Shown one piece after another: positions 1 to 39,178 of a stretch of 39,178 nucleotides of DNA (its first letter is position 1; every line of letters starts with the position of its first letter). The stretch covers positions 1 through 39,178 of the forward strand of contig NZ_JAQMSD010000132.1 in NCBI RefSeq assembly GCF_028330525.1, written 5' to 3'. The notes below the pieces were generated by a model. The model searched no databases. It was not told the origin of the DNA and saw only the letters and a program-made list of their open reading frames with translations. The stretch comes from Spirulina sp. CS-785/01 (GTDB taxonomy: Bacteria; Cyanobacteriota; Cyanobacteriia; Cyanobacteriales; Spirulinaceae). The translations under genes and the position numbers were made by a program.

Positions 1-265
1 ACAAACTTGGGTCAAAAGAATTTTAAAGTTTTGCCCAGTCCATGAAATCTGGATTGAACGAGTTAAATTTGACACCCAGTTAATGCAAAATGCAGAGATG
101 AGTGGGAAGGAGTACCAACAAGGAACAGTCCAAGGCTACACCATAAGAGAATATCTCTTAGAGAAATGGAATCGTCAAGAGCGAAAAAGATTGGGAACTT
201 CACTCTCTTATGTCTCAAAGGTGATTCATCGTAAGGATGGCTATAAGTATGGTTTTGTGGCCTAA
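1..265 (+). pseudogene. IscB-type RNA-guided nuclease remnant (partial, HNH and following region deleted)
   Basis: The frame is open from the window edge to a TAA at 263-265, so the gene begins upstream. The visible residues run from a WVKR-type helix through 'RVKFDTQLMQNAEMSG' and 'EYQQGT' to 'REYLLEKW'. This matches the segment just before the HNH domain in IscB/HEARO-associated nucleases, where a Cys-containing HNH ('CAYC...') should follow. Instead the frame jumps to 'SYVSKVIHRKDGYKYG', which resembles the extreme C-terminus of IscB. The HNH core and last RuvC part therefore appear to be missing through an in-frame deletion. IscB proteins are IS200/IS605-type transposon nucleases guided by an omega RNA encoded upstream; that RNA would be outside this window. 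The stop overlaps the next start (TAATG). Family assignment is from recognised motifs; the deletion is inferred from their abnormal spacing. Confidence 0.6.
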
Positions 266-675
266 TGTCAAAAAAAAGTCGAGTAAATCCCCTACTAGAG
301 GTTAACCCCCAAGTCCAAGGATTTGAAGAAATTTATCGCAACGGCCAACGGCAAGTCCGGTATTGGAATGACCCGGATTTTCTCACCACTCACGATTTCC
401 TCGACGGGAGAGGGTTTAATCCCTTCCGGTCCTGGGGTCGAGATTTGCCCTTTCTAGGGGATGATAGTCCCACCCATTGGCACAACTCCTCCACCCCTCG
501 CTATATTAACCCCTATGAGGTAGTGGTTGAGGCTGAGTCGCCCTCCTCGGGCCTTGGGGGCAATTTCTGGCAGAATGCGAAACAAGGGTTAACCCGTGGG
601 ACGCGCAAGTTAGGCAATATGGTGAGAAATATTCCGGCTGCGTTACAAGCAGCTTGGCGCACTTTGAATCAATAA
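265..675 (+). CDS. Hypothetical protein, 136 aa, overlapping the IscB remnant
   Basis: I do not recognise this family. The ATG at 265 shares its A with the TAA stop of the IscB remnant, so translation could be coupled; there is no separate Shine-Dalgarno. The protein is soluble and has no signal peptide or membrane segment. Its middle is rich in aromatic residues, Asp and Gly (around 'DFLDGRGFNPFRSWGRDLPF'). The C-terminal 40 residues are basic and probably helical ('GTRKLGNMVRNI'), which could suit membrane or nucleic-acid contact. It ends 34 bp before the convergent stop of the metalloprotease gene. It may be a host gene invaded at its 5' end by the IscB element, or an element passenger. 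The reading frame is convincing in length and composition, but function is unknown. Confidence 0.5.
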   Translation: MSKKSRVNPLLEVNPQVQGFEEIYRNGQRQVRYWNDPDFLTTHDFLDGRGFNPFRSWGRDLPFLGDDSPTHWHNSSTPRYINPYEVVVEAESPSSGLGGNFWQNAKQGLTRGTRKLGNMVRNIPAALQAAWRTLNQ

Positions 676-5271: not shown

Positions 5272-5379
5272 TGCTTTTTGCTGTCCTAAAAGATGGAAAA
5301 GTGTTGCTTTTTCTAAATCTACAAGTACCGTTTCAAAATTCCGCAACTTCTGCCATAAATTTAGCTGGATTTTGCACAA

Positions 5380-5989
5380 TTTACGGAAAACCGTACCCGA
5401 TATCCTGACCCAATTTTGCTGCTGTTGTCACCCTAACCTTAGAACGGCCTTACCAACTCAGTTTTTCCCTTGTTACGGACTATTAAGCTAAATATCAAGA
5501 AATGATACAAGATATTTAACTTTTTTAGAGACGCGGTAACATAGAATTAAGTTGGTAATTTGTCAATTCAGTTACATCTTTTTTCGTAAGCTGATGTCTG
5601 GACTAGGCTTTTTGAATTATGCCGATTGAAATAAGCCAATAGGCGTTTTGAGCCATAGACTTAAAAAACTATCAGCAAGAATTGATCGGGTTTCAACAGT
5701 TAGCCGTTAAGAGCTTGACAGTTTAGAGTCGAGTTTAAACAATTTGAGGATGAGCGTGGGTTTAAATAGCCCAGTTTTGGGATTGTTCTAGTTCGAGTTT
5801 CTCACTTCGAGTTTCTAGTTCAATTTCCCTAGTTAGTGTTCTCCTTTAAATTGTTCACTGTCTCTATTCTGTCTTTTTTTTTCTTAGCTCGTTATTGATC
5901 TTATCACAGACAATTTGTGATTTGGATCAATTCTGCTCAAGAAACCTGAGAGTTGTTTTTGGCTATCTTTTTTGGTCTAGAAAAACAAT
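5380..5989. other. 610-bp intergenic region, no gene found
   Basis: AT-rich sequence with no convincing reading frame. It holds repeated GAGTTTCT/AGTTC words around 5790-5820, a 9-T tract near 5874 and a small palindrome, ATCACA/TGTGAT, at about 5902-5920. It should contain the promoter of the Mo-nitrogenase-domain gene and the 3' end of the signalling operon. Confidence 0.5.
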
Positions 5990-7189
5990 TTAATTATTGT
6001 TTTTGGGGGAGTCCTCCTGTAAAAAGAGATCGGGAACTGCGATCGCAGGTTTCCCGCTTTTCGAGGTAGGATGACTGGTAGTAGAGTGAGATGTTCCCGT
6101 CGGTGATGTAGCAAACATCCCCACCTCTGGAGAAGAAGTCCCAGACTCCTCCCCAGTCGGTTCATTGACCAACCAACTGGACGCAGTAAGATTGGGGGTT
6201 TGTTGACGACGTATTTTCGGGGAAGGAGTGGAGGAGGAGACGGGAGAGGGAGTCGGAGGGTTTGGGGGGGTTGGACGGGGTTTAACTGTCTTTTGAGACA
6301 AAGACGGGGATTTTGTGGTTTTGATGGTTTTTGCTTCCCAGATGAGTTGTTGGTGGTGGGGTTTCCCGTCGGGGAGAGAGAGGATATGTCCCGTCACCGT
6401 CATCCGACGTTTCAGGGAGTCTGAGACTAGGAACACAGACCCAAAAATGAGTGTATCTTGGGGAAGATTTTCCAGTAAGAGAGTCACCCCATTGACTCCG
6501 GGTTGGAGATGACGGGGGAAAAACTCCACCCCAGCAATTTCTGCGATAATGTCACAAGTCACCGGGACCACTACTCGCAGTTTAAAGGAGTGGTCACACC
6601 CCCACGCAAGTTGTCCTAAATTAATCGACTCTGGGTAGTCCCAAACCCCTGCTTCTGACGGGATACCTGTCACCATTCCACGAACCTCCACATTTTCAAA
6701 CTGTACATTACATCCGGGTTGAACTTGTATTGCGTAACTGTCGGGGTTGGGTTCGGTAAGTTCTATGCGACAATTTTTTAAAGTAATGCGATCGCAATTT
6801 AACGCAACCACCGTCCCCCCCCGTCCCCAAATGGTGGCCCCCTGACCATCCAAAACCACAGGTCGGTCAATAATGAGAGGAGACTGATATTCTTGTTGAG
6901 GAGGAAACAGAGTTAAAGTGTCCCCTTCTGGGAGAGTCTCTAGTTGATATTGCAGAGAATACCCCGAAGAAAAGTCCAAATGACTCGGAGACACCACAGG
7001 AGTCTCATCCCCCTGTAACCGTCTCCCCGACACTACAAACAGAGAGTCCGCAAGATCATCCTCCGACAGAGGAGGAGACAGAGGAGGAGGTGAAACAGGT
7101 TGAGGTGTCCGAGAGACAGGTTGCGGAGGAGGTAAACTCCCAGACTGTCCTAATAATGTTTGTTTTAAGGTTTTAAGTAGAGTAAGCAT
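5990..7189 (-). CDS. Proline-rich protein with short beta-helix-like core, third gene of the PP2C/kinase operon
   Basis: The 399-aa protein has three parts. Residues ~17-50 are a Pro-rich linker. Residues ~85-175 look like parallel beta-helix rungs: 'EYQSPLIIDRPVVLDGQGAT', 'VVALNCDRITLKNCRIEL' and 'GCNVQFENVEVRG', with repeating hydrophobic strands and Asn/Cys turns as in pectate-lyase-like surfaces. A beta-rich domain (~190-290) is followed by a long disordered Ser/Thr/Pro tail rich in TP and SP sites. It begins 49 bp after the zinc-ribbon kinase on the same strand, so it is probably co-expressed and the Ser/Thr-rich tail is a plausible kinase substrate (inference). No catalytic residues are recognised. 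No signal peptide is present, so it is likely cytoplasmic. Confidence 0.6.
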   Translation of the reverse strand: MLTLLKTLKQTLLGQSGSLPPPQPVSRTPQPVSPPPLSPPLSEDDLADSLFVVSGRRLQGDETPVVSPSHLDFSSGYSLQYQLETLPEGDTLTLFPPQQEYQSPLIIDRPVVLDGQGATIWGRGGTVVALNCDRITLKNCRIELTEPNPDSYAIQVQPGCNVQFENVEVRGMVTGIPSEAGVWDYPESINLGQLAWGCDHSFKLRVVVPVTCDIIAEIAGVEFFPRHLQPGVNGVTLLLENLPQDTLIFGSVFLVSDSLKRRMTVTGHILSLPDGKPHHQQLIWEAKTIKTTKSPSLSQKTVKPRPTPPNPPTPSPVSSSTPSPKIRRQQTPNLTASSWLVNEPTGEESGTSSPEVGMFATSPTGTSHSTTSHPTSKSGKPAIAVPDLFLQEDSPKNNN

Positions 7190-37919: not shown

Positions 37920-38882
37920 ATGGCCAAACGTCGATTTTCTCTTGTTTTCTCCTCTCTCGTTGCCCTCTCCGTAAGTTTTTGGAGTGGCATGGCCTTCGCG
38001 GGTGATCCCTTCCGTAGCCAAAACCCCCGGCCTATTGGGGATCAAACCGAAGCGGCCTTTGAAGCCTTTTTTATGGAAGGAAATTATCCCGAAGCCGTAG
38101 AATTAATCCAACAGGCTGCAACCACTGAAACCAATGATCCCCTCACCAATGCCTTGATGGCCGCCCTAGCGTACAATCAACAAGACTGGAGTGGCCTGCA
38201 AACCCAAGCCCAAAATACCCTAGACACCGCAGAACAGATCATGGCGGATGATCCTCTGAGAGGGAATTTATATACCGCCATTGGGCATTTCTTGGAAGGG
38301 ATTTATAAATTTGAACAACAAGGGCCTGTCGGGGCCGTGGCCAAACTGGGGCAAGTGTTGCGGTATATGGATAAAGCGGCAGAAGTGAATCCCAATGACC
38401 CGGAATTAAATTTAATTAAAGGGTATATGGACTTAATTATAGCGGTTCACTTGCCTATGTCTGATCCCAGTGATGCGATCGCCAATTTAGAACGCAACGC
38501 AGCCCCCAGTTATCTTGTCCACCGAGGTATTGCCTTGGCCTATCGAGACATAGGACAAAGTGAAAAGGACACCAACCAGAGAAAAGACACCTTTGAAAAC
38601 GCCCTAGAATACGTCAACAGGGCCCTAGAAGAAACCCCAGATAACCCGGAAGTTATTTACCTTAAAGCCCAAATTCTCCATGAATTGGGTCATACGAACA
38701 ATGATGATCAAGACACCTTAGAAAATGCGATCGCCTTATTCGGCCAAGTCAAAGCCCACCTTGATCAACTCCCCGCCATCCCTCAATTAGACCGAGAAAT
38801 AAACATCGCTTGCAGTCGCGCCTATCCCCAAGGCCCCAACAACGAAGACTCCGAAGCCAGTCAAGTCTGCCAAGCCTTGTAA
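37920..38882 (+). CDS. Secreted TPR-repeat protein (Sll0314/Alr1548-type family)
   Basis: It has a signal peptide with a basic start and hydrophobic core, with likely cleavage after 'GMAFA' (27). The remainder (~290 aa) is helical with TPR-like repeats: 'AAFEAFFMEGNYPEAVELI', 'LMAALAYNQQDWSGL', 'DKAAEVNPNDPELNLIKGYM' and 'NRALEETPDNPEVIYLKAQI'. A single Cys pair ('NIACSRAY' and 'SQVCQAL') near the C-terminus could form a disulphide, consistent with a periplasmic or thylakoid-lumen location. Length and pattern fit a conserved cyanobacterial TPR family of unknown function, possibly a scaffold for protein complexes. It has its own TATAAT promoter element and no operon partners in view. Confidence 0.85.
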   Translation: MAKRRFSLVFSSLVALSVSFWSGMAFAGDPFRSQNPRPIGDQTEAAFEAFFMEGNYPEAVELIQQAATTETNDPLTNALMAALAYNQQDWSGLQTQAQNTLDTAEQIMADDPLRGNLYTAIGHFLEGIYKFEQQGPVGAVAKLGQVLRYMDKAAEVNPNDPELNLIKGYMDLIIAVHLPMSDPSDAIANLERNAAPSYLVHRGIALAYRDIGQSEKDTNQRKDTFENALEYVNRALEETPDNPEVIYLKAQILHELGHTNNDDQDTLENAIALFGQVKAHLDQLPAIPQLDREINIACSRAYPQGPNNEDSEASQVCQAL

Positions 38883-38984
38883 GCACAATTTATAGTTGAT
38901 AGTCCACTCAACTGTATTCGCTAACCGCTCGTTGAAAGCTAGACATTGATTGACATTGTTTAATTTTTGTTGACTTAGAAAGGG

Positions 38985-39178
38985 ACGAGCGTGCAGACTC
39001 AGCCATAAATCCTGTAAAAAGGTAGGCTACCTTCGCCCGGGTCATCACACCCAAGTGTAAACGCCAGCACTTGGCTCTGTGGTCTGTAATTAAACAAAAC
39101 ACCAACGCTTTTGGAGGTGGTGTTACAGACGTAAAAAGCCCTTTGAAGTTTGTCGAGGCAAACCTTACAGTTTAACTG
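38985..39178 (+). ncRNA. Structured RNA candidate, possibly HEARO/IscB omega RNA (runs off window)
   Basis: Compact nested pairing with no reading frame. CCAAGTG (39051-39057) pairs with CACTTGG (39068-39074). GTCTGTAA (39082-39089) pairs with TTACAGAC (39123-39130), enclosing CACCA/TGGTG (39100-39104 with 39118-39122). GTTTG (39148-39152) pairs with CAAAC (39159-39163). GGTAGGCTACC is at 39021-39031. Its size and multi-stem layout, and the IscB remnant at the other end of the window, suggest an omega (HEARO) RNA with the nuclease gene just downstream. The 5' boundary is a guess. The stems are seen directly; the family is inferred. Confidence 0.5.

What the first reader, a model, noticed from the sequence alone, without database searches (positions are those of the whole stretch)
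38985..39178. Strongly folded RNA at the right edge, possible omega RNA of an IscB element
Four perfect stems occur within 115 bases, including an 8-bp outer stem enclosing a 5-bp inner stem. No protein frame overlaps. The window's left end carries an IscB remnant, so the genome has had such elements. In intact loci the RNA lies directly before the iscB start, which would fall just past 39178.
Basis: partly seen in the sequence, partly recalled or inferred. Interest (0 to 1): 0.65.

Follow-up and report, generated by a model that had tools for sequence, protein, structure and literature searches.

The report
Omega RNA of a shrunken IscB transposon
The folded RNA at the window's right edge is a guide-RNA gene of the IscB kind (relatives of Cas9), but it sits in one of many copies of a cyanobacterial jumping gene, most of which have lost their nuclease, so it is a known kind of thing rather than a new one.

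Summary
Window 38990-39168 (+) matches the Rfam HEARO/omega-RNA model end to end, with most of the first 52 model positions skipped: 76.8 bits, E 1.9e-15. That is under the gathering score of 83, so a default scan misses it. Across 17 loci, 25 of 38 predicted pairs show compensatory changes. The feature starts earlier than stated: the transposon end and the RNA's 5' stem begin at 38925.

The window is one contig. It stops at 39178 inside a repeat found at 40 or more places in this genome. Copies that continue show the iscB ATG after 25 more bases, as predicted. However, 18 of 19 copies readable across the deletion junction keep only about 28 iscB codons fused to the iscB 3' end (a 438-bp mini-element), and no intact iscB is assembled. 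Relatives with intact iscB (426 aa) and the RNA directly upstream exist.

In these copies the RNA diverges as fast as the dead iscB remnant (3.0% against 3.4%), so there is no sign that the RNAs are kept for a function. Folding energy alone (z -0.7) would not have flagged the stretch. Best reading: an IscB (ISC-type) transposon copy, probably non-autonomous, carrying its omega RNA. Known kind, modest interest.

The parts
38925..39178 (+). Left part of a multi-copy IscB-derived transposon copy, cut by the contig end; the complete mini-element is 438 bp in C154
   Evidence: 40 or more places in the genome; sharp left end CCGCTCGTT with different host flanks, right end GGTTAACCC in sister copies
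38925..38991 (+). Transposon left end and 5' domain of the omega RNA: stem 38926-38933 with 38984-38991; its loop holds short repeats that vary in number between copies
   Evidence: Fold; in the C220 copy the HEARO match starts one base before the element end; repeats
38990..39168 (+). Omega RNA (HEARO, RF02033) scaffold
   Evidence: 76.8 bits, E 1.9e-15, model 1-211 of 211 with most of the first 52 positions skipped; covariation
39051..39074 (+). 8-bp hairpin of the omega RNA (39051-39058 with 39067-39074)
   Evidence: Helix 7: 6 of 8 pairs with changes on both sides, 99.3% of cells paired
39082..39130 (+). 8-bp outer stem (39082-39089 with 39123-39130) enclosing a short inner stem
   Evidence: Helix 8: 7 of 9 pairs with changes on both sides, 94.1% of cells paired
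38900..38924 (+). Host flank immediately 5' of the element; by analogy with IscB this would supply the guide segment
   Evidence: The 19 left flanks in hand differ; its role as guide is inferred
2..265 (+). iscB 3' part of another copy at the contig's left end; HNH and RuvC-III missing, frame kept
   Evidence: RRXRR PF14239; guided_IscB positions 137-194; jumps from about residue 196 to 400 of the G024 protein
266..308 (+). Right end of the same element family (ending GAGGTTAACCC) next to that iscB tail
   Evidence: Sequence; aligned with the mini-element right end

Best explanation
The right edge holds the omega RNA of a copy of an IscB (ISC-type, IS200/IS605-like) transposon, in what is most likely a cyanobacterium. 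Shown: the RNA family, the element's ends, the high copy number, the position of the iscB start after 25 more bases in sister copies, and the internal deletion that leaves about 28 iscB codons fused to the iscB 3' end in 18 of 19 copies readable across it. Inferred: in intact relatives a transcript running from the host flank through the omega RNA gives IscB a guide equal to the flanking host DNA, so IscB cuts the empty donor site left after excision and the element is retained. The mini-elements most simply keep both ends and the RNA because one deletion derivative was copied by a transposase acting in trans. Whether their RNAs still serve any IscB is not shown, and the divergence data give no support for it.
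For: HEARO match. 13 HEARO matches in the own genome, 11 of this family and 2 of another type. 16 of 16 related iscB loci scanned, of 19 fetched, have HEARO directly upstream. 25 of 38 pairs with compensatory change, 97.7% of cells paired against 31-39% when slid. 40 distinct places (a capped list), sharp ends, differing flanks. iscB ATG after 25 more bases in copies that continue. 18 of 19 copies readable across the junction deleted. No NF040563 match over its cut-off in the own genome, best 136.5 of 175 bits. Intact 426-aa IscB in G024 and G051 at 446 and 456 bits. Two 99.6% identical iscB elements at different sites in G024. A 144-aa Y1 transposase frame in the own genome.
Against: The Rfam score is below the curated gathering score. 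The window copy cannot be read past 39178. Which transposase moves the element was not tested. No empty site was demonstrated. The omega RNA part is not better conserved among copies than the dead iscB remnant (ratio 0.89, 0.61-1.35), which argues against a present function of these RNAs. In one search one of five measures, further pair types, was reached by 43 of 500 shuffles.
Confidence: 0.88

Rival explanations
1. The window copy is a full autonomous-type element: an intact iscB starts just past 39178 and the RNA is its working omega RNA. (Not exclusive of the best explanation for the other copies.)
For: C35 keeps an undeleted iscB 5' part after the same RNA: a 129-codon frame of which residues 6-119 match guided_IscB. 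Five right halves (C111, C252, C268, C260, window left) come from copies with a longer iscB 3' part. The assembly has 351 contigs, so a repeated intact copy could be missing.
Against: 18 of the 19 copies readable across the junction are deleted. No assembled iscB passes the family cut-off. C252 and the window-left copy are themselves truncated.
Confidence: 0.15
2. The stretch is not a functional RNA: its stems are only the DNA hairpins that an IS200/IS605-type transposase needs at the element end.
For: No excess conservation of the RNA part among the copies. The 5' stem lies at the transposon end.
Against: The structure matches the HEARO model over 179 bases. It shows compensatory change in relatives, which have iscB directly downstream. 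Only the outer 5' stem lies at the DNA end.
Confidence: 0.12
3. An unrelated structured RNA (leader, attenuator, riboswitch) of the host gene that follows.
For: The element starts 42 bases after a TPR gene's stop codon, in intergenic DNA.
Against: The permissive Rfam scan lists no other family above chance. The same RNA lies in many different contexts with the same ends.
Confidence: 0.01

Closest known systems
HEARO / omega RNA of IscB (Rfam RF02033; HEARO passages seen in PMC9755519)
   Same: Match from model position 1 to 211, same stem layout, directly upstream of the iscB start in sister copies and relatives; the 5' end of the model lies at the transposon end in C220
   Different: Score 6 bits under gathering; the 5' domain is a longer stem-loop with a variable repeat in its loop
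ISC transposons (IscB insertion sequences, IS200/IS605-like; recalled, primary papers not held)
   Same: iscB family protein, omega RNA at the 5' end, sharp ends, many copies, no room for a transposase in the 438-bp or 1.6-kb elements seen
   Different: Most readable copies have lost nearly all of iscB; right end reads GGTTAACCC, whereas G278 and G265 elements end in ATGA
MITE-like, non-autonomous IS200/IS605 derivatives (recalled)
   Same: Short internally deleted copies that keep both ends and outnumber the assembled parent
   Different: No terminal inverted repeats seen at the two ends; keeps a guide-RNA scaffold inside
IscB elements of genomes G024 and G051 (unnamed relatives, same order)
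   Same: IscB 80% and 76% identical to the C35 fragment, HEARO directly upstream
   Different: Intact 426-aa iscB; G024 right end TTAATACCCCC instead of GAGGTTAACCC

Membership tests
HEARO / IscB omega RNA (RF02033) | Match to the covariance model at the curated gathering score (a database threshold) | tested here: not met
   76.8 bits against 83. Of the 11 copies of this family found in the own genome, two (C283, 86.7; C220, 86.1) pass, so the family call rests on them and on the E-value.
HEARO / IscB omega RNA (RF02033) | Significant match over the whole model | tested here: met
   E 1.9e-15, model 1-211 of 211, with most of the first 52 positions skipped
HEARO / IscB omega RNA (RF02033) | Conserved secondary structure with compensatory changes | tested here: met
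   25 of 38 pairs; 0 of 500 shuffles reach the covariation score, though 43 of 500 reach the number of further pair types. The structure was predicted on the same alignment.
HEARO / IscB omega RNA (RF02033) | Lies directly upstream of an iscB start | tested here: met
   In sister copies and 16 of 16 related loci scanned; at the window's own site the contig ends first
HEARO / IscB omega RNA (RF02033) | Guides IscB cleavage with its 5' segment | not testable with these tools
   Needs biochemistry; the 19 left flanks in hand do differ
ISC (IscB) transposon | Encodes IscB with RuvC and HNH domains | tested here: inconclusive
   Only fragments in the own assembly; intact in relatives G024 and G051
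ISC (IscB) transposon | Discrete mobile unit with fixed ends and many sites | tested here: met
   two near-identical copies at different sites in G024
ISC (IscB) transposon | Moved by a Y1 (TnpA) transposase, inserts beside a fixed short target | tested here: inconclusive
   A 144-aa Y1 frame exists at C116, no link shown; AACCC at 20 of 21 right ends as printed, the 21st (C349s) shifted one base by a gap, but whether it belongs to the element or to the target could not be decided
MITE-like non-autonomous element | Short internal-deletion derivative in more copies than the parent | tested here: met
   18 deleted against 1 undeleted among copies readable across the junction; 5 further right halves have a longer iscB 3' part
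MITE-like non-autonomous element | Terminal inverted repeats | tested here: not met
   By inspection CCGCTCGTT and GGTTAACCC are not inverted repeats of each other; IS200/IS605 derivatives are not expected to have them (recalled)

The most novel reading that the evidence does not exclude
The mini-elements parasitise IscB as well as the transposase: each makes an omega RNA whose guide is its own host flank, so a shared IscB made elsewhere in the cell cuts that element's empty site and restores it. Retention would then be RNA-guided but in trans, with dozens of addresses served by one nuclease. The fixed right-end motif (ACCC rather than ATGA) would be the target-adjacent motif of this IscB lineage.
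Probability: 0.12. Interest if true: 0.6.

Novelty: new member of a known kind. Interest (0 to 1): 0.27.

Why it matters
It shows that a default Rfam scan can miss genuine IscB guide RNAs by a few bits, and that a feature cut by a contig edge can be read from sister copies. If the mini-elements' RNAs are still loaded by an IscB in trans, one nuclease would maintain many short elements, a simple natural case of shared RNA-guided retention. The divergence data here do not favour that.

Tried and rejected
Energy folding as evidence: rejected, z -0.71 and -1.66.

Selection on the RNA among the copies: tested by substitutions against their consensus, using the 40 loci and the window in hand (39 loci with a match, plus the window). 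Omega RNA part 111 of 3647 sites, 5' iscB remnant 55 of 1620, spacer 10 of 494, left end 20 of 1371, iscB 3' part plus right end 58 of 1591 (44 of 1221 without the longer-tail copies). Ratio of RNA to 5' remnant 0.89 (0.61-1.35, 95% by resampling copies without the tail copies). No sign of extra constraint on the RNA. A first alignment of in-genome RNAs held one empty row (C35) and too little variation for a pairing test.

Empty sites: the gene after C82 (19 genomes), the gene before C285 (19 genomes) and the gene at C335 (19 genomes) were compared with relatives. The insertions lie in or beside poorly conserved sequence and no exact empty site could be shown. Looking for the right-hand partner of the window copy through the TPR gene's neighbours in 10 relatives' loci gave none.

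Named relatives: a scan of genome contigs with the C35 fragment found none; a profile scan found 61 loci. Plasmid records: no match to the mini-element. G159's three iscB copies gave no consistent right end.

Literature: HEARO with IscB and cyanobacteria, 0 papers; at least two of IscB, non-autonomous, omega RNA, 14; HEARO with IS605, 9; at least four of IscB, guide, transposon, TnpA, retention, 55 with 15 listed; any of HEARO RNA, standalone, mobile genetic element, 78,522 with 5 listed, useless; HEARO with Rfam and IscB, 1; cyanobacteria with MITE and IS605, 8. I saw passages of PMC9755519 and one passage of PMC11870625; the others only as search listings. Two papers asked for by id are not held. 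The library lacks most subscription papers, so I make no claim that IscB mini-elements are unreported.

Full report
What is at the right edge. Its folding energy is unremarkable: z = -0.71, with 48 of 200 shuffles as stable. A default Rfam scan of the window finds nothing at gathering scores. The permissive scan of 38000-39178 gives HEARO (RF02033) at 38990-39168, plus strand, 76.8 bits against a gathering score of 83, E 1.9e-15, model 1-211 of 211 with only 4 bases shown for the first 52 model positions; the two other listings are at chance level (E 2.2 and 5.3). Repeating on 38915-39178 gives the same match at E 4.2e-16.

The element around it. A search of the own genome with 38900-39178 lists 39 matches, and with a sister copy 43 matches at 40 distinct places. 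Both lists are capped at 40 scored candidates, so they are lower bounds; the window's own left end, for instance, is not among them. At least 27 of the 40 places abut a contig end (lengths), which explains why this contig (C113, the window) also stops here. Aligned copies share a sharp left end, CCGCTCGTT, at window 38925, and a sharp right end, GGTTAACCC. Among the loci I had fetched, 19 left flanks differ from one another; of 21 right ends, 20 print AACCC and the 21st (C349s) is shifted one base by a gap. C154 and C220 are complete with both flanks; the C154 element spans 438 bases. In C220 the HEARO match starts one base before the element's left end, so the 5' end of the RNA model and the transposon end coincide there. 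With the left end included, the fold of the window copy shows a 5' stem, 38926-38933 with 38984-38991, and z = -1.66, with 11 of 200 shuffles as stable.

What follows the RNA. In copies that continue past the point equivalent to 39178, 25 bases follow and then the ATG of iscB. C35 reads on in a 129-codon frame, of which residues 6-119 match guided_IscB at 138.8 bits, then the similarity stops. Eighteen other copies readable across the junction share one internal deletion that joins about 28 iscB codons to the last codons of iscB and the right end; two of them, C18m and C335, lack the RNA side. Five further right halves (C111, C252, C268, C260 and the window's own left end) carry a longer iscB 3' part. 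The window's left-end protein is IscB with about residues 197-399 of the G024 protein missing. No iscB in the assembly passes the family cut-off; the best is 136.5 of 175 bits. Because the genome is in 351 contigs, an unassembled intact copy cannot be excluded.

Relatives. Of 388 genomes of the order, 163, the own one included, match the C35 fragment at E 1e-20. I scanned 16 of the 19 relatives' loci fetched there for RNA families: 16 of 16 carry HEARO, nine of them above the gathering score and two (L148, L149) only over model positions 53-197. G024 and G051 have intact 426-aa IscB proteins at 446 and 456 bits. G024 has two 99.6% identical elements at different sites, so that lineage is or was recently mobile. 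The profile scan of named genomes gave 61 loci whose titles name cyanobacteria or genera that I know to be cyanobacterial. For the structure test I aligned 17 RNAs: three from this genome and 14 of the 16 relatives, leaving out the two partial matches. 38 pairs are predicted, 25 with compensatory changes. 97.7% of cells pair, against 31-39% when partners are slid by 1-3 columns. 0 of 500 shuffles reach the observed value for four of five measures, but 43 of 500 do for the number of further pair types. The structure was predicted on the same alignment, which favours it in the slid control, but the margin is wide.

How it most likely works. In intact IscB systems the RNA upstream of iscB is the guide RNA, with a reprogrammable 5' spacer (passages of PMC9755519). 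Since the RNA model starts at the transposon end, the guide would be the host flank, and IscB would cut the site from which the element has left; this retention model is recalled and inferred, not shown here. The copies around the window are most simply short derivatives of one deletion event, spread by a transposase in trans. A 144-aa Y1 transposase frame exists at C116, but no link was tested. If the RNAs of the mini-elements mattered, they should change more slowly than the dead iscB remnant. They do not: 111 of 3647 sites against 55 of 1620, ratio 0.89, 95% 0.61-1.35. The left end changes least (20 of 1371), as expected if transposition is the main constraint on these copies.

Ends compared with other lineages. 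In G278 (eight copies) and G265 (three copies) the elements start GTCA, the first bases of the HEARO consensus, and end in ATGA. G024 starts CCGTTCGTG and ends TTAATACCCCC. G159's three copies gave left ends GGGATCATT but no consistent right end. The right-end motif of the window's lineage, AACCC, may therefore be its target-adjacent motif. The empty sites needed to prove that could not be found.

Verdict. The interpretation as IscB omega RNA is supported. The thing is a new member of a known kind: an omega RNA inside a copy, probably non-autonomous, of an IscB transposon.

Noticed in passing
window 1-675: The contig also begins inside a copy of the same element family. Its right end (266-308) runs in frame into a host-like ORF (265-675), so the ORF as listed starts on transposon DNA.
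   Followed up: partly
L050 3520-3883, L051 1-350 (minus), L052 1-330 (minus), L049 3833-4282 (minus): A second IscB-like family (MNRIPVVSKDGQPLMPTKPS...) with its own similar leader of about 200 bases at contig ends C286, C39 and C36, and a truncated frame in C78; those contigs gave no HEARO match. A bare leader-like stretch also ends C35 (L043 1-140).
   Followed up: no
L048 2894-3106 (minus) and L055 3057-3235 (minus): A second HEARO type (130.2 and 55.8 bits); in C38 an unrelated 224-aa frame follows instead of iscB.
   Followed up: no
L045 about 6429-6530, L056 about 5350-5464 (minus): The loop of the 5' stem carries a short tandem repeat (units like GATTGACATTGTT) that is expanded in the C69 and C165 copies.
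   Followed up: no
L123 (C246) between the two element matches: One copy is itself interrupted by about 125 bases of other DNA shortly before its right end.
   Followed up: no
element positions 316-321 in C154, C220 and others: Two subgroups of copies differ by 5 bases in the iscB remnant; the undeleted C35 copy lacks those 5 bases, so the longer form probably gained them.
   Followed up: no
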